Shown piece by piece: positions 1 through 56,414 of a stretch of DNA of 64,000 bases; positions within the stretch are counted from its first letter, which is position 1, and each line of letters starts with the position of its first letter. Source of the stretch: Cladocopium goreaui. Taxonomy: Eukaryota; Sar; Dinophyceae; Suessiales; Symbiodiniaceae. The translations under genes and the position numbers were made by a program. The stretch lies in contig CAMXCT020000126.1 of the NCBI GenBank assembly GCA_947184155.2, forward strand, positions 165,066 through 229,065, given 5' to 3'. The notes below the pieces were generated by a model, which searched no databases, was not told where the DNA came from, and was given only the letters and a program-made list of their open reading frames with translations.

Positions 1-1341
1 TCTGTTGGGGATGCTGGGTAGTGTCGTTTGTTGGGGATTCATATGGGTTTGTCTGAAAATAGTGTATACCCCCAATGATAGCCATTTAATAGGGACAATG
101 ATCATGAACCATTGGCTTTAGGGTACACTATTGTCAAACAATCCCATATGCCCTAAGAATGTAGGAAATTGCTGGAGAATAGACTTTTGTAATTGTAGGC
201 ATTTTTGCCGCCACCAAATGATCTATGGTGGATGTTTCACGTGTTAATTTACTGGAAGCTAACCGCCATAAAAATATAGTACATTGATTCATTGATGGAC
301 ATGGACATGGACATGGATTCATTTAGTTCCCGAAAAAACAAAAAAGTGGGAAAGTAAGGAAGGCACCTTCCAACCTAGATCAAACACATGAAACATCTTC
401 CGAAAGGAGATGTCCAATATCTGGATTCACCAAAGGACAATAAGAAACATCGGAAACATCATTTCAGCAAATCTTGGTTTCCGTATAATGGTTCCAAGTT
501 CACCCCAGTCCGAAACACCAACACCTGTTGGTTCAGTTCCCACTCTTGTTCACGAAACTCCCATGCTTTGAAACAGTGAAGATAGCTGTCTTTCTTGTCT
601 GCTTAGATTTTGTTAGATAGGTTCGTTGACAATGTGGTAACCAATCTGTGTAATTCCGGCTGTTCTGGGGTATACCCAACAAATATACAAATATCAGATA
701 AAATAGTTGATTGCTGATATCATATCTCATGAAATCCCATTGATAGCCATCACTATAATATACCCATTGTATCCTCCATATTTGAAGCCGAATGAGGCCA
801 TCACAAAAAATGCTGCTTACATCCCATTCTATCGCAATTAAATGATCCAGAATATTTGCTTATATCATAGTTATATCCATTTGAAAAAATATATGCCAAT
901 CAATATGTTGTTGGTTATATATGGTTATATCCCATGACATACCCATGAAAAATCTCACATATTTGGTGATTAAATCATTTTCTATTCTCCACGGAGAGCG
1001 GGCCGCATACCTCTCTGAGGAGTTTCAAGGCGTCCTCCAAGAGAACCTGCAAGAGCGATTGACCATGTCATGACAGCTGCAGGAAACCATGGCAACTATA
1101 ACTTATGGTATAAGCTATTGTATAAGCTATGGTATAACCTATGGTATGTATATAATTGTATATATATATATATATGGTATAACCAATGGTATAACCATGG
1201 TTTTACATTCTCTAACGAGCCAAAAAGAACATGGTGTAGACTCGATGAGGAATGATTGGTCCATCGTCCCAAGTAATTTATCCACTTGGTTATGTCAAAA
1301 TAGCTATTGAACATGGCCATAGAAATAGTTGTTTTACCTAT
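1..1341. other. AT-rich non-coding DNA left of the giant transposon
   Basis: No open frame here looks like a protein. The stretch holds an inverted-repeat element (41-150), a run of TATGGTATAA-like decamers (about 1096-1200) and the left half of a MITE (about 1272-1349). I see nothing else of note. Confidence 0.7.
41..150. mobile_element. MITE-like inverted-repeat element, family 2
   Basis: The left end (catatgggtttgtctgaaaa, continuing to 72) and the reverse complement of the right end (121-150) match for about 27 bases with a few differences. There is no coding capacity. The same terminal motif, TTTGTCTGAAAA or close to it, recurs near 33240, 53396 and 29738, so this is a repeat family and not a chance palindrome. 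A cut-and-paste MITE is the simplest reading. Confidence 0.6.
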
Positions 1342-1349
1342 TAAAAATG
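1272..1349. mobile_element. Left half of a split family-1 MITE (insertion target)
   Basis: The bases around 1276-1349 match the left half of the complete MITE at 21263-21368 (shared runs such as ttatgtcaaaatagctattg and attaaaaatg). The match stops abruptly after TAAAAATG at 1342-1349. The right half resumes at 13399 with the same TAAAAATG. The two halves together make one nearly complete MITE. Confidence 0.75.
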
Positions 1350-1373
1350 CAGAACGCACTTGACAACGGACAG
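1350..1373 (+). repeat. Left terminal inverted repeat of the giant transposon
   Basis: It begins cagaacgcacttgacaacgg directly after the TAAAAATG target duplication. Seventeen of 24 positions agree with the reverse complement of 13375-13398. The core TGACAA and the CG/GAG steps are shared. The 7-bp satellite starts directly inward. Confidence 0.7.
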
Positions 1374-1918
1374 ATTCGAGATTCGAGATCCGAGATCCGA
1401 GATCCGAGATTCGAGATCCGAGATCCGAGATCCGAGATCCGAGATCCGAGACTCGAGATTCGAGATCCGAGATCCGAGATTCGAGATTCGAGATTCGAGA
1501 TCCGAGATCCGAGATTCGAGATTCGAGATTCGAGATCCGAGATCCGAGATCCGAGATGCAAGATCCGAGATTCGAGATCCGAGATTCGAGATCCGAGATC
1601 CGAGATCCTAGATTCGAGATTCAAGATCCGAGATTCGAGATTCGAGATCCGAGATCCGAGATTTGAGATTCGAGATCTGAGATCCGAGATCCGAGATCCG
1701 AGATCCGAGATCCGAGATCCGAGATCCGAGATTCGAGACTCGAGATCCGAGATCCGAGATTCGAGATTCGAGATTCGAGATCCGAGATCCGAGATCCGAG
1801 ATTCGAGATCCGAGATGCGAGATCCGAGATCCGAGATCCGAGATTCGATCCGAGATCCGAGATCCGAGATCCGAGATTCGAGATCCGAGATCCGAGATCC
1901 GAAATTCGAGATTCGACA
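1374..1918. repeat. 7-bp satellite (GAGATCC/GAGATTC), left subterminal array
   Basis: About 78 units of GAGATCC or GAGATTC run with rare variants. Because 7 is not a multiple of 3, each strand reads the same heptapeptide in all three frames, and neither strand makes a stop codon. The long open frames seen here on both strands (for example about 208 codons on plus) are therefore a product of the repeat and not evidence of a gene. A second array of the same unit and orientation lies at 12885-13358. Confidence 0.95.
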
Positions 1919-2047
1919 CCCAAAAGATCAGGTTAGGCAATTTCCTGCCTCATAGTTGTATAATTCGTGTTAATTCTTTATTTCCTACCTAATTAGGTAA
2001 TTTTAAAGGTAAACATGTCATCTAATTTTAAGGTAATTCGGAACGTG

Positions 2048-2160
2048 GAGTTGAAAGTTTGCGTGCAAACTTGCGAGGCGGGGCTGAAAGTTTGCATGCA
2101 AACTTGCGAGACGAGGTTGAAAGTTTGGATGCAAACTTGCGAGGGGAGGTTGAAAGTTCC
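2048..2160. repeat. 36-bp tandem repeat with perfect palindromes
   Basis: There are about three units of roughly 36 bp. Each contains a self-complementary core, best seen as AAGTTTGCATGCAAACTT near 2086-2103. On the plus strand one frame reads a 12-residue repeat of the type ESLxANLRGEV, a peptide pattern that I recall being common in dinoflagellate repeat DNA. I do not take it as a gene. Confidence 0.8.
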
Positions 2161-2169
2161 AGTTGTTCC

Positions 2170-2545
2170 CTTCGGGCTGTTGCAGGTAACATCACTTCAG
2201 AGCACCCGCTCCATGTGCACATTGGATCCAAAGATCGCAAGGGCATCTGGCACACACGCAACGAACCTGCGGATAGAAGATATAGAAGTGGGAAGGGAAA
2301 CTTGCCAGTTTTCCTGTACTTGCAGGTTGTCATGAACAAGCCGTTCGTTTCAGGCGGTTGCGGGTAATATCACTTCAGCGCACTCGCTCCATGTGCACAT
2401 TGGAACCAAGAATCGCAGGGGCATCTGGCACACACGCAATGAAGCTGCGGATAGAAGTGAGAAGGCAGACTTGCCAACTTTCCTGCACCTGCTAGTTGTC
2501 ACAACAAGCTGTTCTCTTTAAGCTGTTGCAGGTAACATCACTTCA
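2170..2545. repeat. Diverged tandem repeat, unit ~170-178 bp
   Basis: GTAACATCACTTCAG or a close form occurs at 2186, 2364 and 2532. Between the starts lie matching blocks (cgctccatgtgcacattgga; gcatctggcacacacgcaa). About 2.1 copies. No gene is seen. Confidence 0.75.
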
Positions 2546-2839
2546 GTTTACAAGTCCGTAGTGGCAAATGGGCCAATTCACAGGCCCTCCACCTCTGATC
2601 GACGGCTGGCAGTGTCTTTACTGTAGCCCCTTCGGAATTTCCACTTCATATATTGTCTCATACCACCTTCTTCTCTTCTCAGGTGTTTTCCCATGCGCGA
2701 AGCGTGTGAATTGGGTATACTCTGAATACGATCTCGTGTGTGCCACCCATCACGCATTCCTCATGATCTGATATATAGCGCCTGCATCGCCAAATCTAGT
2801 TGAAGGTTCAGTCGTGGAATTTGGAAGTTACTCTGTTCC

Positions 2840-3252
2840 CTATATACATGTTTCAAAACAATTTCAGTTTGATGTGTGGGTCTTGCCTCAGACCAAGAAG
2901 CGGTGACCAAATATCGTACAGGCTGAGTTCGGAACTCTGTTTGGAACTGAGGCCGTCGCCTTTCGCGTGGCGCGTTGATTAAAATGAGACAGCGCAGAGA
3001 TGCTCTACGGCACCTCGGCAGGATGAAATGCAGCAGACTCACTCAGACTCTCAAAACGGTTTGAGTTTGATGTGTGCGCCTTGCCTCAGACCAAGGCATG
3101 GTGACCTAATGACTGACTTACACGTGTTAAGTTCGGAACCCCGTTTGGAACTGCATGAGGCCATCGCGTATCGTGTGGTGCAAAGAGTAAAAATGAGACA
3201 GCGCAGAGATGCTCTACCGCACCTCGGCGGGATGAAATGCAGCAGACTCACT
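2840..3252. repeat. Two diverged tandem copies of a ~200-bp unit
   Basis: The motifs TTTGATGTGTG, CCTTGCCTCAGACCAAG and AAAATGAGACAGCGCAGAGA each occur twice, about 200-208 bp apart (for example at 2982 and 3192). The copies differ at many positions. The block sits just upstream of the transposase gene and may hold part of its 5' region. No open frame is convincing. Confidence 0.75.
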
Positions 3253-3454
3253 GGTGGGCCCCGCTGAAATTTTGCCAGAGGGCCCTAGAATGGATTCTTC
3301 TTTCGTTCTCCTCCAGTTTGTTTTCAGCGAACTATAGGCCCTTTTAAACTTCAACTGGGACAGGCCACTTCGAGTGTAATCCATCATACATCCGCCGCAG
3401 AAACGCCCAACAGCAATAAGTGGCCACATGAAGAGCAGTTCAGATTAGACAGCC

Positions 3455-5919
3455 ATGACTAGCAGCACTGGCTACCAACGTTCAGCAATTCAAGACGCCT
3501 TTTGTGTTTTTTTGCACTGCAGTAAGCTTGTCACTCCTTCTGTTGCCATGGCAGAAGTTTCATGGGCAGCTCTTCTGCAGCCTCTTGAGGCAAGCGCTGC
3601 AGCAACAGTAGTGTTGATTCTTCAGCTCGTGCCCATCCCCCTTGCCGGAGCTGTGTTGCGATCTTTAGCATGGGCCTGGCACAAGCAGTCTCTAGCATCA
3701 AATAGCTCGGAGAATGTGGTGTGGAAAGTTGCTCGTTACTTGCCAGCGCTCACGTGCGGACAGCGCACTGTGGCGCCACTGTTGTCCTCTCTCAAAGACT
3801 TGCAAAAGGATTGCCCGACGCTCCCTGTGGTGCGGGTGTCCAGTGCCAGGTCCCAATGTCCTTGCGGCCATGATCTTCGGGAGAAAGCCCCAGTTGCCGA
3901 AGCCACCATTGCAAACAATGCGGCTGCGTCTCGGAGGACTAGTAGCAATCGCTACAAGGTTTACTCTTTGAACGCAGGCCTCTTGTGGGCGGATTTTGTG
4001 GAGCAGCAGTGCCCGGCTTGCCGCAAGTACTTCTTGGGGAATTGGTCTTTCAAGCGGCAACAGTCTGGCTTCGGGCATATATCAAATTTGCAATGTCAGT
4101 CATCCGCCGCAGATGGCTTTTTCATTATACCTCGCTACCGGAGCTTCTTTGCGGTTGAAATAGCACTTCTCAAACACCTCACTGACAGCTTGCATTTCAG
4201 CGGAGGGTCGATGAAGGCTGCAGTCTTGGTATGGGCCATGCGTCATTCAGAGGCTTGGCAGCAGGATTTGCTCTTGGGCCCAGACAGAACTCAGCTGCCG
4301 CATACCATCAGCAACTTGTTGTCCGCTTGGTATTCTTGGAGGGCCTTTGACATGGCAGGCCAGCTAGCTGAGCCTATTGTTTGGGATATGACCCCAGCCG
4401 GCTTCGACGCTTCCTTGTTAGCGCATACAGCGGCCATCCGAGAGCAGCATTTAGATTGGGTTGCGGCCCATATCAAAGCATGCCCTCGCTGTCGTGACAA
4501 TCCTTGCGTCATTGTGGATGGGAAGGCTGGCGCTCGGCGACTGATTTGCGCAGGCCAGGACAGAGTGTACACCCGGTGCCGGCTTCTCTTAATTTCTTCC
4601 GTGGTTTTTGTGTGTGGGTGGGCTACAATAAAGTTCGCGAGCGACCCCTAAAAAAATCTGACTTTGGCTTGAAAATGCTTGAAACTTTTCTTTCTCTGGA
4701 CCTATACCCGCTCTTTGACAAACATAGGTCCCGAAGACTCGGCGTCCTGGGTGTGAGGTTCCAAAGCAGCTTATTCTCATACAGTTTTCTAGAAATCTGC
4801 AAGTACTGTAGCTCCGCCCTCCTACCCCCGCTGGCCATGACAGGCACAGATGGTACAGTATCCTTCCCAGACCTTGGCGTAGAATTCGCTTCTGGCTGCA
4901 CCAACTTTGCGCACGCAAAGCACCAGCATTGCTCTGCATGCCGCCACTTGCCCGAACATGACCACCTCATTGCCGATCAGCTTTCCGTGCTTGGCACAGA
5001 AGAGCGCGAGGATGCTGACGGCCAAGGCCTTGAGATCATGTACGTCGTGCAATGCAAAGATCCTTCTGATGCCTCGCAGGTAGTGGAATTGCTTCTGCCG
5101 CGCCAAGAGGTGCGAAAAGATTTGCTCCTGACCTTTGAAAGAGGGCTTTTGCCACAAAAGACAGGTCATCGCAACAAAAAAGCTGCAAAAGCCAAGGGCT
5201 CGAGACAAAAAGCTCGGTGGCTGCGAAAAAACGATGCATCTTGTTCAAGCATTCTGGCGCCCAAGAAGGCGCGTGTCAAGAAGAAGCCACGTTTGCCTGC
5301 CAAGCCTGCCAAGTTAGAGCCCACTGAGTGCACAGTCGACAAAGATACCCACCGCCGCCGCCGAACCACAGGAGGCATTTTGACTTGTGTGCTTAGTTGC
5401 GGATTGTTGGCCGACTTCATCGAGATGTGGCGTGGGGAGCAAATGGAATTAGTGTACGTCTTTCTCCTTCAGTTTCTCAAAGACATGCAGACGCGTGGGG
5501 TTTCCATTTCTTGCGTTGCCTATGATAATGCTTGCAAGCTGTGGAAAACAGTGCAAGAGAAGAAGGATAGCAGGCCGCCATGGTCTACCAACTTTTCACA
5601 AATTGGGCTGGTTCTGGACCACTTCCACAAGCGCAATCATACGTGGTGCTTGAAGAATCTTCCCCAGACAAACCCGGACACACCGCAAAATGCGGCGCTG
5701 CTGAAAAACAAAAACACTGAAGCGTGCGAACAGCTGAACAGCTGGATCACAGGAAGAACCAAATCCAGCTTGGAGATGCCACCTGGTCGCTTTGCCATTT
5801 ATTGGCGCACCTTGTTCCAGCAGCACAATGTTTGGTTGGAGGCAGAGGCTGACTGCTTGCGAAGACGATTTGCCAAAGGCAAGATGCAGCATGATCCTGA
5901 CAAGACTCGCAGTGGGTAA
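3455..5919 (+). CDS. KDZ-family transposase with CxC5/CxC6-like cysteine clusters (two exons)
   Basis: Predicted DNA transposase of the Kyakuja-Dileera-Zisupton group. The first exon is open from ATG 3455 (an internal ATG at 3548 is also possible). It holds a CPCGHD...CPACRKYF cysteine pair (about 3858-4030), then CPRCRDNPC and VDGKAGARR (about 4480-4545), an arrangement like the CxC5 and CxC6 clusters associated with KDZ transposases. The reading then moves to another frame: a CTNFAH...HCSAC cluster (about 4894-4945), a basic linker (5160-5370), and the KDZ core with a YDNACKL motif (Asp codon 5524), LDHFHKRNHTWC (about 5614-5652) and NTEACEQLNSW (5713-5745), ending at TAA 5917. An intron between about 4566 and 4870 explains the frame change; its exact ends are not fixed. 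The core is shorter than in many KDZ proteins, and I cannot assign every catalytic acid. Confidence 0.75.
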
Positions 5920-8121
5920 AAATTGCTACGCAATCATTACCCGTGACTTCTTTGTTCTTGCGGTTTGTTCCTCACATGTTTCATATCTCTTAATACCTTC
6001 TGAAAATAGGTGTTCTCCATGCCAGATCCTCATGCACTTCCAAGGATAGCCCAGAAACCTCAACTTTCTCTTCCTTTTTCTTTGCGATTTCGCACCTCAT
6101 TCAGCGACAGTCATGTCTGGCAGCTCTGATGCCTCCAGGTTTTCATTGTGCACGACCAGCGGCCGCACCTGGGCGCCGTTGAGCAGAGGGGAAGAGCGCT
6201 GTGAAAGACAGACTTCCCCGCGTGGCCCGCCAATTCCGTCATTGTAAGCAAACCCTGACGATGTCATGCTGACAAGACACCGTGATACACGGAAGAAAAC
6301 AATGTTTCGAATCAGTAATCACTCCAAGACACCGGTGATGCATTGACATATGGGCGGTTCCAAGCCAATACCCGGTAAATTGCTCAAAAAGTTCTATGTC
6401 AACGTTTGGAGTGGCGAATCGTTATTCAATGGTAACGTTCTATTTGAATCTGGCAGTGGTCAGTTTGAAGCTCCCATTTGAAGCGCCCCAAATTTTTGCA
6501 CATCTCGCCTGCCTTCCAGGTACATGGTCCAAGCCCAAGGTGCGACAGCAAAGCCTCTGGCTTGGTTTCAGTTGGCGGACGAGAAGGCAGCCCACTTGGA
6601 GTTGCTGGCTGCATTAAGATGTGAAGGGTTGAAGTGACCGGCCCCAAGGGTTCCATGATCCAAGCGTTTGGGCAATGAAGTTGGGACTTGAGCACGTCCA
6701 TACTGACCATCCTGTGATGAAAGGTTGCCGGCTTTAACAGTGGAAAAGGAATCGGATTCATGACCGTTGGGTACAGGTGACCGCTCTTACAGTTGCATCT
6801 TCCTTCCAAATCATGTCCAAAATGTTTCAAAATCATGTTTGCTGAGTTTGGGGTCCTCCCCGCCTGCCCAAACTAATCACATCCGCATGTGGGAAAGGCT
6901 GCGGCGCGACGAGTTCCCTATCATTTGTGTTCAACCATACATTTGCCTTGTGGTACTCTCAATCCAAACGGTTTCTTGCCATCAAAGGAGCCGGTCAGTC
7001 TGACTCCGCGACGCAATGAAGAAACTCAATTCAGCAACGCGCCATCCTTGCGCAAAGACTTTTGGAGGGATGCGTTGCTTTCTCTATTCTTTGCGAGGTG
7101 TTGCCAAGAGGCGGTATGGGAAAGAGAATATCATAGGGTAAAAACATGCATTTCAAAAAAAAAAGATTCAAGCTGGTTCGCCGTAGCCCGCAGGTCCAGT
7201 GGTTTAGCTGTGTTGTCTGTCTTTACCCTATCTTTGCTGGATGGCAATCCCTGTCTTTTGCCCACCGACTGCCTGTATGAGAATGTCTAGCATTCCCGTT
7301 GCCCATGAGCCAAGGCGAAGCAACTTGGTAGGCGGAGAAGGTCCCTGACAGCATTGGCATCTTTATCTGCCTCTAAACGCCCCATTTGACTTGCAAATCA
7401 GATAGAAAAGTGCTTTAAAACACATCCATCATGATCAAGCCTAATTAAAGTGTGTGCTCTGTTCCTGTGGGAACGCGTATAGTACCCCGCTTGTCACCCA
7501 TCCGCGGCGCCAAGGTATACAGCGCTGCGACATCGGAGCCTTCACTGGCCAACTGTATACAAGGCGCAAAGGACATGTCACTGATGCTCCTGCTGATGAT
7601 AATGATGATGATGTTGATGATGTGACGTGGTGCGCCACCTGGGGCGAATCGGCGAAGCTGGGTGGAAAGAAGTTGGGCAAGTGATGCAGCAGTGGGCTAC
7701 CTGCTTCAAATCGCATTAAGCCAAATAAAAGTCAACTTGTTTTTTTGGTTGCGTTGAGTCTTGCGCCGTGAATAGGAAGAGTCACCAGGCAGAAAATGGC
7801 CTTTGTCTCATCAGATCCGCGCCTCCCTGAAGCAGGTTTGATGCACGGTGCGCTGATGCTGACAGAATGCAGCACTGTCGCAAGGCTTGCGCTTCACAAA
7901 AGCTGTGCAAGTCAGCTCTGCAACGTAGGCAACATCCCAAGAGTCAAACTGAAGATGGTGTCCTCCAGGAACATTGCGTATTTAAATGTGTTGATTACCT
8001 GCCCCACGAACACATGCATCTCCAAAGCCAAACTCAGTTGCTGCAAGAGCCGGCTCTGCTCAAAAGCACCTTGCCCTCACGGAGGCATCCAAGGTTTCTG
8101 TCTCGGTGCACGCATTGTAAG
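5920..8121. other. Region between the two transposon genes, no convincing gene
   Basis: The first part is presumably the transposase 3' region. An open plus frame ending at 7684 (about 7460-7684) contains an Asp-rich run and a basic C-terminus ending GGKKLGK. Another open frame runs 7015-7290. Either could be an exon of a passenger gene, but I recognise no family and see no splice pair that settles it. Confidence 0.5.
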
Positions 8122-11076
8122 ATGTCCCCACTTCGACACTTCCTCTGCTTGGCTTTGGTTTGTGGAGCACGTGCTGCGAAAAGAGGGAAATACACGCCAG
8201 CGATGCCTGAGGAGCGCACCATGAATGGCAAAGATGTGCGCCAAGCCACAAAGCTCTTAGAGACCATGTGCCCTTTCCCTTCCGAGACTATGGCCCAAAC
8301 TGTGCCCTGTTCTTGGCAGTTCGCTGGGGCCCTAGCGCGGGCCACGAGCTTGCATCAGAGCTGCGCCTTTGTGCACCTTCTCATCATGTTGTCACTGGTC
8401 CTGAACGCCGTTCAAGTCCGTTTTGGAGGCATCTTAGGAAAGTTCCCCAACATCCTGATGCTTCAGCATGGTGAACCTGGGGATGGCAAATCCATTGCCC
8501 TGTGGCTGGTCCTTCAAGTTTTGTACTACTTCGACACCATCAAAAGCAAGCATGATGCTGCCAGGCATCGCATCGACTCGCGCCGCTATGAAGAAGCAAA
8601 GCGGGCTTACGAAGGAGCGCTTGCAATCAATGACCCTGAAGCTGAAGAGCCAGTTCCACCAACCAAGCCAGAAAAACGAGATTCTGTGCAGAACAAAGGA
8701 ACTTTCTATGGACGCTTGGGCTGCCTTGTGTTTTGTTTCATTTTTTTTACCGTTTCATGTCTCTCCTTCTGACTGCTGCTAGAAACAAGTATTGCTTCAG
8801 AGGAACCTTGTGAACTTCTGCAATGTAATGAATGTTTCTCTAAGCATGCTTCAATGAACTTCTGCGAGCAGAGATCCTGCTAACTCTTCACCGCCACAAA
8901 AAGTACAACCATGTACAACCATGTTTTGCTCACTTTGCGACCAAGGATTGGGATGCCTCCTCGAGAAGCAAGGTGGGCGTGCATTCCTGGCCTTGCATGA
9001 AGGCAAGTCTTGGCTTTCTGAAGCGTTCGAACATGCCAAAGGCGGAGGCTTGGAGGATTTGAACCAAATTCTCGACCACGACATCTACAAGAACAACCCC
9101 GCCACAGGACAGTCTCGCTTTCATGTGCGAAACCCGCATGTTGTGGGCGCTGTCCTGATGCACCTCGAAGAGTTGCTGGACATTGGGAAGAAAGGCGACA
9201 GCGTTGCGGGACTCCCACGCTTCTTGATCGGTCATTTCTTATCAGTCTGCAGCAAGGTCTGCCCAGAGAACTTGTCTGCCCAGGAAATGCAAAACTTGCT
9301 CCTCGAAGACCCCAATTATTTCAATGACCTTTCTTATGATGAGATTGTCAAGGCTGCAACCAACTTGCTCTTGCTTGCTGATGCGGCTTTTCCTTATCAG
9401 CGTCGGAGAGACGATGAAGTAGGGCCTGCCGCAAGCAGGTACTCCGAGATCCGAGGAATTCACACCATGGAGTTTGCAGAGGGCGTTGTTAGCAGTTTCC
9501 AACAAGACTTCAATGAGATGGTGGATGATTACCGTAAGGCCAAGAAAGCAGGCGATGCCAAGGCAGCACTTCTCAGCAAAGACAAGACCAGGCCCCTTCA
9601 GTTCATCCCAGGCATCCACATCTTTGAGCAAGGCTTGCTCCACCTCTTGTCCTTGGCAAGCGTCCCCGCTGATCAATGGCAGAACCTTTCCCCAGAAGAC
9701 ATGGTGCGGAAAGTGGCCGCGGTAAATCCAGATGTTTTCTTCAGTGATTTTCTGCCAAGCTCCGTGCCTCCATGTGCTACCCAGCAATCCGTTGATGCAG
9801 CATTCTCTCTTTCCAGGTGGTTCCAATCCGTCTACCACTTCAGCACGAACGCTGCTCAAAAGCTGGACGAATTTCGAAAAGACCGTCTTATTAAGACGGA
9901 CTTGCCGCAGCCGAGCGCCCAAGCATTTGCTGAGAAGCTGCAAAAGGCGGTTGGGCGGTTGGGTTTTTCATTCGTCGTGCCTTAAGAGTGTGATGAATTC
10001 TGTGCGTCTTAAGTTTCTATAACTGTTACCACTGGGTGCTAGAGGGGATTTGGGTAAAGCCCGTGTCCTCCTTCCTTTGACAGGCTGCTGCCACATTGAT
10101 TGACCCCGGCAACACCTTTCTGACCATGGACAGGGTTACCTACAAACGCTTTGTCTTCGATGCCAGCAACACGGATGCCGAAGTCTATGCCAAGCACTGC
10201 GACCTCATCCTTCTCGCCCTGATTGGCTTCATTGCCATCGGCCATGGAAACTGGGCAAAGGTAAAGTACGCAGAAGATGATCCCAACTTCATGTTGGCGG
10301 CCAACCGGCTGCAACTGTTCTCCCCAGAAGTCTCTTTTCAGGAGTTGCGCGCTGCCGTTCCTTTCAATGAAGGGCCCCTTCCCAACCTTGACCAGGACAA
10401 TGCAGACACTGTGTGTCAAGCATTGGTCAAACTTCTGAAAGGCTTCCCGATTGCCATTGACAAGCTGCCTGACATTCAGGCTCTTGCTGTGCACGCCGAC
10501 ATTCCGCCTTCGCAACCTGATCCTGGTGCATCACAAGCTGTCGCAGCTTCTCCGCACAAGAAGCCGGAAGAACAGCATGTGTTGACACAGGTTGCTCTTG
10601 GAAATCCTGAGGCCAGTGATGATGAGCCGCCGGCGAAGCGGCTGAAAGACGAACCTCTCCAAGTCGCTGACCTGCGCAATCACAAAGACACGATGACGAA
10701 GATGCTGGCTTGGATCCTCAAGCAGAAGAACCATTCTATGCCGCAATGGCGCTTGAATGAAAAAGTGCGAGAGGTTCATCCAACAACAGAAAAATCCTAT
10801 GTGCTGGCTGCCAAAGTCACAAAGCTTTTGATTTCAGCTACGCTAGCTGTGCCGACGCCAAACAAAACCAACAGCTTTGACCTTGTGAAGGTTCCTTAGG
10901 AAGATCGCGATTCCATCGTCATTGAGTTGGAGAAGGTTGGCATCTTGAAGCCTGGAGACAAGCAGAAGGTCACAGTGCAGTTGGGAAAAAGAGACACTGC
11001 AGCAGTTTTTGAAGAGTGTAAGTTCCAGGAGTGCATGGCATTGTGTGCTGAAGGCTTCAAAGGACACGCAGAGTGA
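8122..11076 (+). CDS. DUF3987-like P-loop ATPase gene carried by the transposon (three exons, one in-frame stop)
   Basis: Exon 1 is open from about ATG 8122 and contains a Walker A motif, GEPGDGKS (about 8470-8493), after a hydrophobic strand (FPNILMLQ). This arrangement and the Lys/Glu-rich helix that follows fit DUF3987 proteins, which are primase- or helicase-associated ATPases of mobile DNA. Exon 1 is open to about 8727. Exon 2 (from about 8968, with the HEGKSWLSEAF motif) runs to about 9976. Exon 3 starts at 10084 after a CAG acceptor. A GT donor at 9974 or 9977 gives a phase-0 intron of 107-110 bp. Exon 3 is interrupted by TAG at 10897-10899, yet the same frame stays open for 58 more codons to TGA 11074. 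I infer an inactivated or read-through copy. The family call is moderate, the P-loop certain. Confidence 0.6.
9974..10083 (+). other. Small intron in the P-loop gene
   Basis: The upstream frame ends in TAA at 9983, and the downstream exon is open in another frame. A GT donor at 9974 or 9977 and a tttgacag acceptor ending at 10083 join the two frames in phase 0. The base after the acceptor is G, as is common in dinoflagellate introns. Confidence 0.55.
10897..10899 (+). other. In-frame TAG inside an otherwise open exon
   Basis: The frame reads ...DLVKVP, TAG, EDRDSIVIELEKVG... and then continues with protein-like composition for 58 codons to TGA at 11074-11076. A single C-to-T or G-to-A class change would create this TAG. 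The sequence cannot tell decay from read-through or an unseen splice. Confidence 0.8.
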
Positions 11077-11650
11077 GGGCATCCTAGACAAAGTCGCATT
11101 CTTCACCGCATCGTGACAAAATGCAAACTTGGCTCCTGCAATCTGCCCTGCCACTTTCTCATTCACCCAGCACGCTTGTGCCGCATTTACTTCTGCTGCT
11201 TGTTCAGCTGCAGCATGTTAAGAGCGTGGTGCATGTCGCCAGTTGGATCTGATGCCGCATTGCTTCCCACCTGCAGGCCACTTCAAAGGGCCACCGCCCT
11301 ATGCTGCTGGGCTCACATTCTGGCTGGAGCTAACAAGGATTGGGCAAGAGTACCTTTGGTTTGGCCCTGAATTCATGGTGATGATTCTGATGGATCTGGT
11401 ATGGGTTACCCTAAACAGTATATGGCCACACTTCAAGTTCTTATGCTATTGGTTAAGGCCTGGTGTTCATTCAAGGTGGTCTCCGGGGTGTCCGGCAACT
11501 TTGGCGACCCTTACAGCACCAAAGTCCTTCGATCTCCTGTTTTCGACAGAATCTCGCACGAAAATGGTGTCCCAGAAGGCTTTCTTCCGAAGGTCTAGTT
11601 TTACCGGCGCGCCGTGCTGTTTTTGGTGTCACGTGCTTGTTTTTTCTTGG
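11077..11650. other. Non-coding spacer after the P-loop gene
   Basis: No convincing coding frame. It leads straight into a 50-bp satellite. Part of it may be the 3' untranslated region of the upstream gene. Confidence 0.5.
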
Positions 11651-12027
11651 ATCTTCTCTGGCACTTGTACACACACACACGCTTGATGCTACTCTGTAGG
11701 ATCTTCTCTGGCACTTGCATACACGCACACACATGAGGCTACACTGTAGGATCTTCTCTGCCACTTGCAGACGCGCACACGCATGAGGCTACGCTGTAGG
11801 ATCTTCTCTGGCACTTGCACACGCGCACACATATGAGGCTACGCTGTAGTATCTTTTCTGGCACTTGCACACACACAGACACAGACACACATACATACAC
11901 ACACACGCACACTTGATGTTACACTGTAGGATCTTCTCGTGCACTTGCACACGCATGATGCTACTCTGTAGGATCTTCTCTGGCACCTGCACACACACAC
12001 ACACACTTGATGCACTCACACTTGATG
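11651..12027. repeat. 50-bp satellite with CA-rich cores
   Basis: Four exact-length units start at 11651, 11701, 11751 and 11801. Each opens atcttctctggcacttg, passes through a CA-rich stretch and ends in ctgtagg or ctgtagt. A longer unit (11851, expanded CA tract) and two shortened or altered units (11931, 11973) follow. No gene. Confidence 0.9.
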
Positions 12028-12169
12028 GCGCTTCTGGGACTGTGTGTACCAAAGAGAAAGACAGGAGAGAAATGTCTGTAGATCAGGCAAGAAGATTTTC
12101 ATTCGAGTACTGAGCAGGCGTGTTACTTTTGTTGAATCTATGTCCATTTTTCGTAGCAGGTGTGAGCCT

Positions 12170-12780
12170 TTGGGGACAAGAGCTTGTCAAGAGAGCTCTT
12201 ATAGAGAGCTTGTACGGAGATCTCTTTCAGAAATCTTGCCAAGAGACCTCATATGGGGAGCTTGTCCAGAGATCTTGCCAAGAGGTCTCTTACTTAGATC
12301 TTGCCAAAAAAAAGCTTCCAAAGAGAGTTTGTACAGAGATTTCATACAGAGATCTTGCCAAGAGATATCCTATAGAGATCTTGTGCAGAGATCTTGCCAG
12401 GAGACCTCTTATAAAGATATTGCCATTAGATCTCGTAAACAGAGCTTGTCGAGATAGCTTGTCGAGATATGTTTTTCAGAGAGCTTGTACGAGGTCTTGC
12501 CAAGAGACGACCTCTTGTAGAGTCTGTAAAGATCTTGTACGGAGGCCTTGTGCAGAAAACAGAGATCTTGCTAAGAGATCTCCTCTAGATTAGAGGCTTG
12601 AGCAGAGATCTTACTTAGAGATTTCTTAAAGACATTTGCAGACATCTTGCGTGGAGATTTCTTGTAGACACCTTGTACAAATAGCCTTCAACCTTGCAAA
12701 GGGATCTTGCACAGCAGCTTCTACAGAAGCTGTCACGAACATCTTGCACACGATGTCCTACAGACAAAGATCTTCGCCAA
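12170..12780. repeat. Degenerate AGATCTTGCC-rich repeat
   Basis: Irregular repeats of about 18-24 bp are built on GAGATCTTGCCAAGAGA and close variants. The palindrome AGATCT occurs many times. Two frames stay open for stretches with SCQE/RDL-type peptides, which I read as repeat artefacts. The block adjoins the second 7-bp array. Confidence 0.8.
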
Positions 12781-12884
12781 GGGAACTTGCAGAATCTAAA
12801 AACTGGTATCTCTTCGGCAAGTTCAGATTCGAGATCCCAGATCTAAAATCCAACTTCCGAGATTCGAGATTCGCGATCCAAGAT

Positions 12885-13358
12885 CCGAGATACGAGATCT
12901 GAGATTCGAGATTCGTGTTCAAGATTCGAGATTCGAGATCCGAGATCCGAGATTCGAGATTCGAGATCCGAGATCCGAGATCCGAGATCCGAGATTCGAG
13001 ATCCGAGATCCGAGATTCGAGATCCGAGATTGGAGATTCGAGATCGGAGATCCGAGATCCGAGATCCGAGATTCGAGATCCGAGATCCGAGATCCGAGAT
13101 CCGAGATTCGAGATCCGAGATCCGAGATCCGAGATCCGAGATCCGAGATTCGAGATTCGAGATCCGAGATCCGAGATTCGAGATTCGAGATTCGAGATCC
13201 GAGATCCGAGATTCGAGATTCGAGATTCGAGATCCGAGATCCGAGATCCGAGATCCGAGATCCGAGATTCGAGATCCGAGATCCGAGATTCGAGATCCGA
13301 GATTCGAGATCCGAGATCCTAGATTCGAGATTCGAGATCCGAGATCCGAGATTCGAGA
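12885..13358. repeat. 7-bp satellite (GAGATCC/GAGATTC), right subterminal array
   Basis: Same unit and same orientation as 1374-1918, with about 65 units and a looser leading edge from about 12825. All six frames are free of stops. The two arrays sit just inside the two ends of the giant transposon, as direct and not inverted repeats. Confidence 0.95.
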
Positions 13359-13374
13359 TTTTCCCGCGGCGCCG

Positions 13375-13398
13375 ATGACCATTGTCAGGTTCGATCTC
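13375..13398 (-). repeat. Right terminal inverted repeat of the giant transposon
   Basis: Read on the minus strand it begins gagatcgaacctgacaatgg. It agrees with the left end at 17 of 24 positions and is followed directly by the second TAAAAATG (13399-13406). Confidence 0.7.
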
Positions 13399-13460
13399 TA
13401 AAAATGATGATTTTCCATAGTTTTTTGTATGTTTACCAGAGGTTATCCACTTGGTATTTC
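13399..13460. mobile_element. Right half of the split family-1 MITE
   Basis: Starting with TAAAAATG, this resumes the MITE interrupted at 1349: gatgattttccatag, then gtttaccagagg. These match the right half of the copy at 21263-21368. It ends near ttatccacttgg, which also lies at the far end of the left half. Confidence 0.75.
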
Positions 13461-14051
13461 ATCATTAGACCATCAACCAAGGCGCTTGATCGTTGTTCAT
13501 TTGGGAAGGATGGGGTCCAACCAAAATCACCCGACTTCAGCAGGTAAATGGGACAACCCCAACGAGATGGGACTTCGCAACAGTGATTCTGAACCACTTC
13601 CTGGGACGGTTATCCAAGCAACATCGTTATAGAACATTTACGGGCAAATCGAATGGGCGATCTCACAAAGTGTGCGGTGAGGATAGTGGAATATCAGCAA
13701 CAAGAGATGATGCATGTATGTCGTGTACCCTTCCAACATACCCAAGTAATAAATGGGAAGGGATATTATATGATATATTATGATATAATATATTAATATA
13801 TATTACTATTAGCAAACATCGGAGATTAAACAAGAATCGGAGCAGAATCAACTCTCAGAATGCAAACAATAAAACTCGCAGGTTACAAGATGTTACACCG
13901 ACAGAGAAACAAACCGTTTTTAGCCTGAGGCCGGCACCACTAGACACTTGGGACCAACCCCAGTACAATGATCGGAATAACCCCACAAAATGAAGGTCGG
14001 CAATTCTTTCCAAAAAAAACCTAGCTGGATATAGATTTTGCCTCGAATTTC
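13461..14051. other. Non-coding, AT-rich
   Basis: No gene is visible. A short AT palindromic tract (about 13765-13805) is the only structure I notice. Confidence 0.5.
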
Positions 14052-15647
14052 TCAGCGACTTTGAGGATCTTGGAGGGATCGGTTGCGGTCATGCAAACTG
14101 TTGGGTAAGCTTGCACCTTCAAGGTCTTTCTGGACTGTGGAAGGAAAAGTCAAGCTTTGAAGACCGGTGGGTAAGGTCACACCTTTCAGGCCATGCTTGA
14201 ATCCAGAAACAAAAGGCTACACCTTCCAGACTCTGCTTAAATCCAGAACCAAAAATCAAACTTTGAAGGCTGCCCGGCAACGTCACATTTGTCAGGCTCT
14301 GGTTGAACCAAAGACCAAAATTCAAACTCTGAAGACTCTTTGGCAACGTCACTCTCTCCAGACTTTGGTCGAAGTGCTGACCAAAAGCCAAACTTTGAAG
14401 ACCGCTTGGAAATGCGACATCTTCCAGGCTTCGGTTGAACCCACCAAGAGTCAAGCTTAGGAGCGCGCTTGGCAACGTCACGAACGAGGTCCAAGCTCTG
14501 ATTGAACGAAAAACCAAAGGTCAAACTGTTCAGATGGCTTGGCAAGGTCACACCCTCCAGCTTCTGGCTGAAGCGCGCGCCAAAACTCAAATGCTGCAGG
14601 CTGCTTGGCAATGACACGCGGTCCAAGCTCTGATTGAAATCCAGGCCGAAAGTCAAACTTTGAAGGCTGTTTGGCAAAGGAACGTTGCCCAGGCCTCGAT
14701 TGAAGCATCTGCCAAATTTTAAGCTCTGCACACTGGATGGCAAAGTGACCTTGTCCAGGGGTTGGTTGAAGGAGTCACCGAAGGTCAAGCTTCGTAGACT
14801 CGTTGGCAAAGCCACTTTGTCCAGGCTTTGGTTGAACTTACTGCCAAATTTCAAGCTTTTGAGGCCACTTGGTAAAAGCACGTGTTCCAGGCTTTGATCG
14901 AATTCCTTGCCAAAAGTCACGTTTTGAAGGCTCCAGGGGTTGGGTAAAGTTCTCACCAAATGTTATACTTCGAAGGCTGCCTGGCAAGGTCGCTTGCTCC
15001 AGAGTGTACTTTAAGGTGAGACCGAATGTCAAATTTTGAAGGTTGCTTGGCAAGGTCACGTGCTCTGGGCTTTGTTTGAAATCTGTGCCCAAGGTCAAGC
15101 TTTGAAGGCTCTCGGGCAATTTGACGCATTCCAGGCATTGATCGAATTGGCAACCAAAAGCAACACTTTTAAGATTTCTGGGCAGCGTTGCACACTCCAT
15201 TCTTTGGTTAAATTCATCACCAAAAGACAAGCTTTGAAGACCGCTTGGCAATGAAACACCTTCCAGGCTTTGGTTGAACATGGTACCAAAAGTCAAACTT
15301 CGAAGTGTGCTCGGCAAGGTCAGGCGGTCGAGGCTCTGGTTGAACGAAAAACCAAAGGTCAAGCTGTTCAAATGGCTCGGCAAGGTCAAGCCCTCAACTT
15401 TCTGGTTGAAGCAACCACCGAGGGTCAAATGCTGCAGGCTGCTTGGCAATGACACACGGTCCAAGCTCTGATTGAAATCCAGGCCGAAAGTCAAACTTTG
15501 AAGGCTGTTTGGCAAGGTGACAGAAGCCAGGCTGTGGTTGAATTCTCTACTGAAAGCAAGGCTCAGAAGACTTTCAGGGAGGTAATACAAATATTCCCCA
15601 GCCATGGCTCCTTCGAGCTGTTTCTCCCTCAAGTGCAAACTCACCAT
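14052..15647 (-). pseudogene. FNIP/leucine-rich-repeat protein, frame-broken
   Basis: On the minus strand from about 15647 to a stop at 14052, a 22-residue repeat of the form LPxxLQSLTFGxxFNQSL recurs more than 20 times. This matches the FNIP repeat and related leucine-rich repeats, which build extended protein-binding solenoids. No enzymatic domain or signal peptide is clear at the start (MVSLHLREKQLEGAM). The repeat pattern moves between frames at three places: about 14940, where part of a repeat is also missing; about 14480; and about 14210, again with loss of most of a repeat. No single frame spans the gene. Introns that each remove part of one repeat are an alternative, but deletions fit better. 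A block of about 176 bp (14495-14670) is nearly repeated at 15337-15514. The repeat call is strong; the pseudogene call is moderate. Confidence 0.8.
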
Positions 15648-21262: not shown

Positions 21263-21368
21263 TACCCTCTGGTTATGTCAAAATAGCTATTGAAAATGGC
21301 CATTTATAGTGAGTTTTCCCATTAAAAATGGTGATTTTCCATAGTTATGTTAGTTTACCAGTGGAATA
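21263..21368. mobile_element. Family-1 MITE, complete copy
   Basis: It runs from taccctctggttatgtcaaa to tagtttaccagtggaata, with inverted ends and a non-coding centre (cccattaaaaatggtgattt). It is the best in-window model of the site into which the giant transposon inserted. The TA at both ends suggests a Tc1/mariner-type element. Confidence 0.7.
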
Positions 21369-53963: not shown

Positions 53964-54313
53964 GTACCGATTTTCTTATATATAAGGCCTATTTTTTAGG
54001 CCTATGTAAGGGAATATCCCAGCAAAATATGGTTGAATTCCACTAGACTGGTTGGGTGGTTGACCTACCCCTCTGAAAAATGATGGACTTCGTCAGGTGG
54101 GATGATTGATTATTCCCAACTGAATGGAAAAATAAAATCCATGTTCCAAACCACCAACCAGTTTGAGACCTAGTATATAAAACCTCGAGTTGGAACCTGA
54201 GGTTTCATGCAACATATTGGAACCGTGAATTTTAAACTGTCCAAACCTCCAAATGCCATATCTGTATTTTTTTGCTAATGGAAGCAGTGAATGGTGGTTT
54301 GAGAGTAGCAAAA

Positions 54314-54395
54314 TACCCTCTGGTAAACGTTTACATAACTATGGAAAGATCCACCATTTTTCATGGGAAAATCCACTATTTCTATAGCCAAAAAT
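54314..54395. mobile_element. Family-1 MITE, truncated left part
   Basis: Begins taccctctggtaaacgttta and shares catgggaaaatccac with relatives. The right end is missing. Confidence 0.5.
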
Positions 54396-56081: not shown

Positions 56082-56185
56082 TACCCTCTGGTAATTTAAC
56101 GTAGCTATTGAAAATGGCCATTAATAGTGGATTTTCCCATTAAAAATTGTGATTTTCTATAGCTATGTTAAATTACCAGAGGGTA
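56082..56185. mobile_element. Family-1 MITE, intact 104-bp copy
   Basis: Left taccctctggtaatttaacg and the inverted right end differ at one position over about 27 bases. The centre reads cccattaaaaattgtgattt. TA at both edges. This is the cleanest member in the window. Confidence 0.85.
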
Positions 56186-56414
56186 TCTACTGCCTGCTGG
56201 CCACCAATGACCCAACTAATTGCCGATCACTGCAGTCACATCATGGCAGTACGGTTGTAAGTTCTCAATAGAATCATACCCTGAATATGCAATGTCGTAT
56301 GCACTATCTGCAACGTAGAAAAAAAAATCCGCCGACCCCGGCCAACAGCAAGGGGGAGCGCGTCAGGGAAGAGAGGTTGTGGACAACAAGAAATACAACA
56401 ACGGGTCTTGGGAA

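What the first reader, a model, noticed from the sequence alone, without database searches (positions are those of the whole stretch)
1342..13406. A 12-kb DNA transposon with KDZ transposase, P-loop passenger gene and satellite-filled ends, caught inside a MITE
Seen: TAAAAATG on both sides; two halves of one MITE that join seamlessly if the block is removed; 17/24 matching inverted ends; one transposase gene and one ATPase gene inside. Known: KDZ elements are reported to make 8-bp duplications. Inferred: the block moved as a unit. A complete, boundary-defined large KDZ element in a dinoflagellate, with a DUF3987-like cargo, may be undescribed.
Basis: partly seen in the sequence, partly recalled or inferred. 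Interest (0 to 1): 0.92.

Follow-up and report, generated by a model that had tools for sequence, protein, structure and literature searches.

The report
Two-gene jumping element in an alga
A 12,000-base jumping DNA element, probably from a dinoflagellate alga, carries both its own cutting enzyme and a second, ATP-binding protein that stays paired with that enzyme in distant relatives, which suggests that the second protein matters for how the element lives or moves.

Summary
Block 1350-13398 (12,049 bp) is a mobile element inserted into a MITE with an exact 8-bp target duplication, TAAAAATG; the joined flanks align across the junction to three other MITE copies in the window.
The genome holds at least 8 more elements with both ends. 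Of all 9, 6 have exact 8-bp duplications, 1 has 7 of 8, and the last 2 share one 8-mer with each other, as if recombined. One of the 9 has lost both genes yet has its own duplication.
A second family (36-49% protein identity) has the same plan: KDZ-type transposase, then DUF3987 ATPase, TIR core CTTGACAA, 8-bp duplications, 7-bp satellite arrays inside both ends. Four Prorocentrum cordatum proteins read KDZ, then ATPase.
So the ATPase is hardly chance cargo: it looks like a conserved partner in a dinoflagellate KDZ-like lineage that I did not find described.
Open: the KDZ Pfam score is just under its cut-off; many weaker KDZ matches in the genome show no ATPase; the ATPase has a signal-peptide-like start in most homologues checked, which fits a nuclear helper poorly. 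No structure could be predicted.

The parts
1342..1349 (.). left copy of the 8-bp target site duplication TAAAAATG
13399..13406 (.). right copy of the 8-bp target site duplication TAAAAATG
1350..13398 (+). the mobile element (12,049 bp)
   Evidence: 7 other long copies in the genome align to it at 95.6-99.5% identity over segments longer than 1 kb, between the same ends
1350..1373 (+). left terminal inverted repeat, starts CAG, core CTTGACAA
   Evidence: 10 exact and 16 near matches in genome, controls 0
13375..13398 (-). right terminal inverted repeat, starts GAG on the minus strand, core CCTGACAA
   Evidence: 16 exact and 22 near matches in genome, controls 0
1372..1916 (+). left 7-bp satellite array (CGAGATC/CGAGATT, about 78 units)
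   Evidence: unit number differs between copies
12825..13359 (+). right 7-bp satellite array, same orientation as the left one (about 77 units)
3455..4561 (+). KDZ-type transposase gene, exon 1 (limits approximate), CxC4-like cysteine cluster
   Evidence: (CxC4 E 0.03, below cut-off)
4843..5919 (+). KDZ-type transposase gene, exon 2 with the likely catalytic core (5' limit approximate)
   Evidence: PF18758 E 2.3e-5, 24.6 bits; homologues 46-93%; motif alignment
8122..8710 (+). ATPase gene, exon 1: signal-peptide-like start, Walker A GEPGDGKS; the following intron appears to be GA-AG
8946..9976 (+). ATPase gene, exon 2 (3' limit approximate)
10084..10899 (+). ATPase gene, exon 3 as present in the window, ending at a stop private to this copy; in 7 of 9 copies the frame runs to about 11076
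1271..1349 (+). left part of the interrupted MITE (with the left duplication; outer limit approximate)
13407..13480 (+). right part of the interrupted MITE (outer limit approximate)

Best explanation
It is a complete, recently mobile, two-gene DNA transposon of a KDZ-like lineage in a dinoflagellate. Shown: the boundaries, the 8-bp duplication, insertion into a MITE, many copies in different flanks, a gene-less copy with the same ends and its own duplication, and pairing of transposase and ATPase in two families and in another species. Inferred: the KDZ transposase recognises the TIR core CTTGACAA and perhaps the 7-bp subterminal arrays, cuts the element out and joins it to staggered, mostly AT-rich target sites, leaving 8-bp duplications; gene-less copies are moved in trans. 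Inferred with less certainty: the DUF3987 ATPase is a dedicated partner that helps the transposase, for instance in end pairing, target choice or DNA remodelling.
For: The empty site is readable in 3 other MITEs. Of 9 elements with both ends, 6 have exact 8-bp duplications and 1 has 7 of 8. The other 2 share CCCTTTTC between the left flank of one and the right flank of the other, the only exact match among 72 cross pairs. Copies differ by about 0.1-0.3% per pair in exons. Gene-less copies: C4148 (5.8 kb, own duplication AAGTATGG) and C949 (98.5% identical to it, right end not found). Pairing in family 1: 12 of 13 KDZ loci have an ATPase exon-2 match on the same contig, and the 13th (C3186) holds ATPase exon 1 near its contig end. 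Pairing in family 2: 6 of 7 KDZ loci, same strand, ATPase downstream. Pairing in Prorocentrum cordatum: 4 predicted proteins read KDZ then ATPase, 2 of them (P0009, P0013) with near-identical matches. Family 2 shares the TIR core, exact 8-bp duplications in 2 of 2 fetched complete copies, and 7-bp arrays. Walker A residues are nearly invariant across the 11 aligned homologues.
Against: Nothing tests the helper role directly. The ATPase has a signal-peptide-like start in 12 of 13 homologues checked plus the window (by hydropathy and eye, no control set), which is unexpected for a nuclear protein; family 2 shows no such stretch next to its start. Within family 1 the counts are 26 non-synonymous (the stop included) to 10 synonymous variant codons, so they show no purifying selection since the last burst. 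Arrays stand in direct, not inverted, orientation, which is odd for symmetric binding sites. The KDZ score is just under Pfam's cut-off; homologues P0016 and P0019 have no Pfam KDZ match. One family-2 KDZ locus (C781) has no ATPase match, two family-1 ATPase loci (C3338, C3554) and the weak ATPase match on C1293 have no KDZ match; these were not fetched. Weaker KDZ matches outside the two families, on many contigs, show no ATPase match, so most KDZ-like genes in this genome may do without it. One family copy has a frameshifted ATPase, the window copy a stop, and one (C5869) a nested insertion in KDZ exon 1.
Confidence: 0.6

Rival explanations
1. The element is a KDZ-like transposon as described, but the ATPase is a passenger that serves the element indirectly, for example by acting in the ER, plastid or outside the cell on host physiology, not in transposition.
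For: Hydrophobic start followed by AxA-like residues and a basic stretch in 12 of 13 homologues checked and in 9 of 9 aligned copies of family 1. Extra genes in large KDZ elements are reported (PMC12477816, passages; PMC12730594, sections).
Against: Basic, NLS-like stretch near the C-terminus in window, family 2, P0002, P0003, P0006 (the NLS reading is recalled). Family 2 lacks the hydrophobic start in the frame seen. KDZ and ATPase read as one protein in 4 Prorocentrum predictions. No signal-peptide predictor was run.
Confidence: 0.27
2. The ATPase is a helicase-like replication factor, and the element moves by a replicative or virus-like route rather than plain cut-and-paste.
For: 3 of 11 homologues weakly match a phage DNA helicase family (PHROG 2373, best E 0.0095). 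DUF3987 proteins are often primase-helicase-like (recalled).
Against: No polymerase, primase or capsid gene was noticed in the frames read, though only six frames were given to Pfam. Pattern-based scans found no relative of the ATPase in viral contigs or prokaryote genome contigs, and none of the KDZ protein in viral contigs. TIRs and fixed 8-bp duplications fit a DDE-type transposase.
Confidence: 0.1
3. The block is an assembly artefact or a chance nest of repeats.
For: Two copies (C862, C6199) have swapped flanks, which could be an assembly error at a repeat.
Against: 9 elements with both ends, 6 with their own exact duplications, plus a second family with the same plan.
Confidence: 0.02

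Closest known systems
KDZ superfamily (Kyakuja-Dileera-Zisupton), large algal members
   Same: KDZ-like catalytic region, CxC-like cysteine cluster (weak), 8-bp duplications as reported for Zisupton and a Dileera family (PMC12730594, section 3.1.1 and passages), size over 10 kb with extra genes as reported for Ectocarpus KDZ, and a 31.7-kb active Chlamydomonas KDZ (PMC12477816, passages)
   Different: Pfam score just under cut-off; conserved DUF3987 ATPase partner; tandem 7-bp satellites just inside both ends; CAG/GAG termini; no dinoflagellate KDZ transposon found in the listings
Kyakuja families with TET/JBP cargo (fungi)
   Same: KDZ transposase with an enzyme gene carried along
   Different: Two characterised families reported with 7-bp duplications, CA..TG ends and no TIRs (PMC12730594 section 3.2.1); here 8 bp, imperfect TIRs, other cargo
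KolobokH (RecQ helicase-carrying DNA transposons)
   Same: Eukaryotic DDE transposon lineage with an ATP-driven accessory enzyme (PMC9587614, passages)
   Different: Another transposase superfamily, Kolobok's 4-bp TTAA duplication, RecQ and not DUF3987
TnsB-TnsC, MuA-MuB, IstA-IstB (bacteria)
   Same: Works-like analogy only: transposase plus dedicated ATPase (recalled)
   Different: No sequence or fold relation was tested or shown; bacterial

Membership tests
KDZ superfamily | PF18758 transposase domain | tested here: inconclusive
   window exon ORF E 2.3e-5, 24.6 bits against 26.6; 2 of 6 aligned homologues match, best E 9.3e-6, 25.9 bits; precomputed PF18758 for 2 of 5 homologues, P0018 and P0020
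KDZ superfamily | 8-bp target site duplication (Zisupton, Dileera) | tested here: met
   family 1: 6 of 9 exact, 1 of 9 with 7/8, 2 of 9 without own duplication but sharing one 8-mer across; family 2: 2 of 2
KDZ superfamily | acidic catalytic triad | tested here: inconclusive
   conserved LxD, YDNAC, VLD, NxExCEQ in 8 aligned sequences; which acids are catalytic was not determined; P0016 has E where the other 7 have D in C-x-V/I-D-K
KDZ superfamily | CxC cysteine cluster at the N-terminus | tested here: inconclusive
   CxC4 E 0.03, 14.6 bits against 26.9
Kyakuja | 7-bp duplication, CA..TG ends, no TIR | tested here: not met
   8 bp, ends CAG..CTC, TIR 17/24; definition from two families in PMC12730594
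Dileera or Zisupton | placement in the transposase tree | not tested
   no reference sequences at hand
DUF3987 (PF13148) | profile above curated cut-off, Walker A | tested here: met
   36.3 bits against 27 on part of exon 1 joined to exon 2; only profile positions 34-198 of 364 align; of the homologues scanned some are below the cut-off
Eukaryotic two-component (transposase plus ATPase) machine | ATPase required for transposition | not testable with these tools
   needs an assay

The most novel reading that the evidence does not exclude
Dinoflagellates host a KDZ-derived lineage that moves by a true two-protein machine: a DDE transposase plus an obligatory DUF3987 ATPase (fused or directly adjacent in Prorocentrum), loaded on tandem 7-bp subterminal arrays. 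This would be a eukaryotic counterpart, by convergence, of bacterial transposase-ATPase pairs such as TnsB-TnsC or MuA-MuB.
Probability: 0.33. Interest if true: 0.85.

Novelty: new variant of a known kind. Interest (0 to 1): 0.64.

Why it matters
It gives a boundary-proven, recently mobile KDZ-like family in a group with strange chromosomes, with young copies, gene-less derivatives and a sister family for comparison. The long pairing of a transposase with an ATPase makes a direct question testable: do some eukaryotic cut-and-paste elements need an ATP-driven partner, as Tn7 and Mu do in bacteria (recalled)? The conserved signal-peptide-like start of that ATPase is a puzzle in itself.

Tried and rejected
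Rejected: chance nesting or artefact (9 elements with both ends, sister family). Rejected: Kyakuja membership by its reported 7-bp, CA..TG, TIR-less definition. Not supported: viral or prokaryotic origin of the ATPase; scans of viral contigs (KDZ) and prokaryote contigs found no relative, but those scans rest on two short peptide patterns each. A PDB sequence search with the ATPase profile gave nothing at E up to 1. NCBIfam gave only an irrelevant weak match. The first ATPase join, used, was out of frame after exon 1, so in those calls the ATPase evidence is mainly exon 1; the join was corrected. Exon limits are approximate. Purifying selection within family 1 was looked for and not seen by codon counts (26 non-synonymous to 10 synonymous). 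C80 (left end with 2 mismatches) holds neither gene in the 9.5 kb fetched and no right end was found. Planned but not done because the machine was busy each time: PF18758 search of the genome, genome count of the MITE and of the family-2 left end, structure prediction of either protein. C1030 (a possible 1.1-kb mini-element) and C781 could not be fetched.
Full report
WHAT WAS CHECKED. The finding claims a 12-kb transposon inside a MITE. The sequence has TAAAAATG at 1342-1349 and 13399-13406. Joining 1271-1349 to 13407-13480 and aligning with three other MITE copies in the same window (21270-21361 +, 54313-54390 -, 56102-56191 +) gives one continuous MITE; at the junction the three carry a single 8-mer (TAAAAATG, GAAAAATG, TAAAAATT) where the window has two. 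The inverted ends match 17 of 24; 200,000 shuffles reach this with frequency 5e-6, and of 63,800 window positions 1 does, the true end itself.

THE FAMILY. The left end occurs 10 times exactly, window included, and 16 times with up to 3 mismatches; the right end 16 and 22 times; reversed controls gave 0. In the stretches held from 12 contigs (the window and 11 others), one search found 9 elements with both ends, on 8 contigs. Their own 8-bp duplications are exact in 6 of 9 (one, ATATATAT, lies in a simple repeat and is weak evidence), 7 of 8 in 1, and absent in 2. Those 2, C862 and C6199, share CCCTTTTC between the right flank of one and the left flank of the other, the only exact match of 72 cross pairs, as expected if they recombined with each other or were joined wrongly in assembly. 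C1011, C3186, C949 and C80 showed a left end only. Seven other long copies match the window at 95.6-99.5% over segments above 1 kb. C5869 carries a nested 3.6-kb insertion in KDZ exon 1. C4148 (5.8 kb, own duplication) holds neither gene, and C949 is 98.5% identical to it: non-autonomous forms, presumably moved in trans. C80 also holds neither gene in the 9.5 kb fetched.

THE GENES. The transposase gene spans about 3455-5919 in two exons; its core matches PF18758 (KDZ) at E 2.3e-5, 24.6 bits, cut-off 26.6. Homologue P0018 scores 25.9 bits; P0016 and P0019 match no Pfam family. The ATPase gene runs from about 8122; part of exon 1 joined to exon 2 matches DUF3987 at E 4.9e-9, 36.3 bits, cut-off 27, over profile positions 34-198 of 364. 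Its first intron appears to be GA-AG. The frame ends at a stop at 10897-10899 that the 8 other aligned copies lack; 7 of 9 copies stay open to about 11076, and C5931+ has a frameshift upstream in this exon. Across these 9 copies (8 with both ends, plus C1011), exons differ by 0.09-0.31% per pair with one indel in all, introns by 0.7-0.9% with more indels; variant codons are 26 non-synonymous, counting the stop, to 10 synonymous. So the copies are young, and the codon counts alone show no selection since their spread.

A SECOND FAMILY WITH THE SAME PLAN. The ATPase exon-2 search found 14 near-identical loci and a group at about 37% identity. The KDZ exon-2 search found 13 near-identical loci and a second group of 7 at 40-42%, with a last exon at 44-49%. 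In the second group, 6 of 7 KDZ loci have the ATPase on the same strand downstream (C781 has none at the threshold; on C5938 it lies 10.5 kb away; C2029 is in pieces). In the first, 12 of 13 KDZ loci have the ATPase exon-2 match on the same contig, and C3186 holds exon 1 near its contig end. Against a general rule: ATPase loci C3338 and C3554 and the weak match on C1293 show no KDZ match, and the weaker KDZ matches outside the two families, on many other contigs, show no ATPase match; none of these was fetched. C304, C4112 and C391 were read. C4112 and C391 are 99.3% identical over 11.4 kb; their ends are GAGGATTGG-CTTGACAA... and, on the other strand, CAGACCCGG-CTTGACAA..., with exact duplications AATATAAT and AAATATGT. 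Both families thus have one CAG and one GAG end and the core C(T/C)TGACAA.

SATELLITES. Family 1 has 7-bp units CGAGATC/CGAGATT, family 2 CGAGAAT/CGAGGAT, just inside both ends. In each family the unit lies on one strand at both ends (family 1, window: CGAGAT 68 and 65, 0 on the other strand there; family 2, C4112: CGAG 64 and 75, 0), so the arrays are direct while the TIRs are inverted. Unit numbers vary among the 8 long copies of family 1, left 60-86, right 46-72. A 21-mer of the family-1 array has 566 matches in the genome (control 3); the first 100 listed lie on four contigs, three of which carry elements of this family; the other 466 were not listed. I read the arrays as binding platforms for the transposase or ATPase (inference); slippage products without function are not excluded.

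WIDER DISTRIBUTION. Four P. cordatum predictions (P0009, P0013, P0014, P0015; three of them partial) read KDZ and then ATPase in one protein; P0009 and P0013 give near-identical matches. This is either a real fusion or two neighbours joined by gene prediction; both mean adjacency. Pattern-based scans found no relative in viral or prokaryote contigs.

AN UNEXPLAINED POINT. The ATPase starts with a hydrophobic stretch, small residues and a basic stretch in the window, in 9 of 9 aligned family-1 copies and in 12 of 13 homologues checked (13 of the 22 found; the other 9 are partial, fused or were otherwise left out; P0006 and P0010 are close relatives); P0003 lacks it. This was judged by hydropathy and eye without a control set. 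Family 2 shows none in the frame next to its start. A basic NLS-like stretch lies near the C-terminus (the label is recalled). This speaks for a role outside the nucleus and is the main evidence against the helper reading.

LITERATURE. PMC12730594 (abstract, sections 3.1.1 and 3.2.1, passages): 8-bp duplications in Zisupton and a Dileera family, 7-bp with CA..TG ends and no TIRs in two Kyakuja families. PMC12477816 (passages): giant KDZ elements over 10 kb with extra genes in Ectocarpus; a 31.7-kb active KDZ in Chlamydomonas. PMC9587614 (passages): RecQ helicase in KolobokH. PMC8226300 (passages): Zisupton and Kyakuja in green algae. PMC9297572 (passages): Zisupton in a nematode. Searches: KDZ transposase or Zisupton with dinoflagellate gave 2 papers, neither holding the word dinoflagellate; KDZ with dinoflagellates gave 5, not opened, none about a dinoflagellate transposon by title; DUF3987 with transposon or transposase listed 15 of 11,205, three of which hold DUF3987 and are bacterial by title; dinoflagellate DNA transposons listed 15 of 51, not opened. 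The library lacks most subscription papers, so this is not proof of absence.

VERDICT. Real, complete and recently mobile: near certain. KDZ-like lineage: likely. ATPase a conserved partner: likely. ATPase a transposition helper: about even. New variant of a known kind.

Noticed in passing
C862:39003-51128 and C6199:228258-240553 of G000: Two copies without own duplications share the 8-mer CCCTTTTC across (left flank of one, right flank of the other): ectopic recombination between copies or an assembly join at the repeat.
   Followed up: partly
window 8122-8202 and homologues P0001, P0002, P0004-P0006, P0008, P0010, P0021-P0024, P0026: Signal-peptide-like N-terminus on a transposon ATPase.
   Followed up: partly
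C5869 copy, inside KDZ exon 1: Nested 3.6-kb insertion with ends CTTGGATGGGCAGGCCTC...GAGGCCTGCCCATCCAAG; probably another transposon.
   Followed up: no
G000 C5923, C2286, C735, C143, C3691 and others: KDZ-like stretches of about 30% identity inside open frames of 1154-3380 aa.
   Followed up: no
G000 C553:231764-232863 and C1030:84202-85316: Possible mini-elements of about 1.1 kb: satellite array matches in C553; both end motifs in C1030.
   Followed up: no
window 14119-15647, minus strand: Repetitive reading frames of the form SLQSLTFG-FNQSL-VTLP, leucine-rich-repeat-like by eye.
   Followed up: no
window 8711-8945: Apparent GA-AG intron in the ATPase gene.
   Followed up: partly
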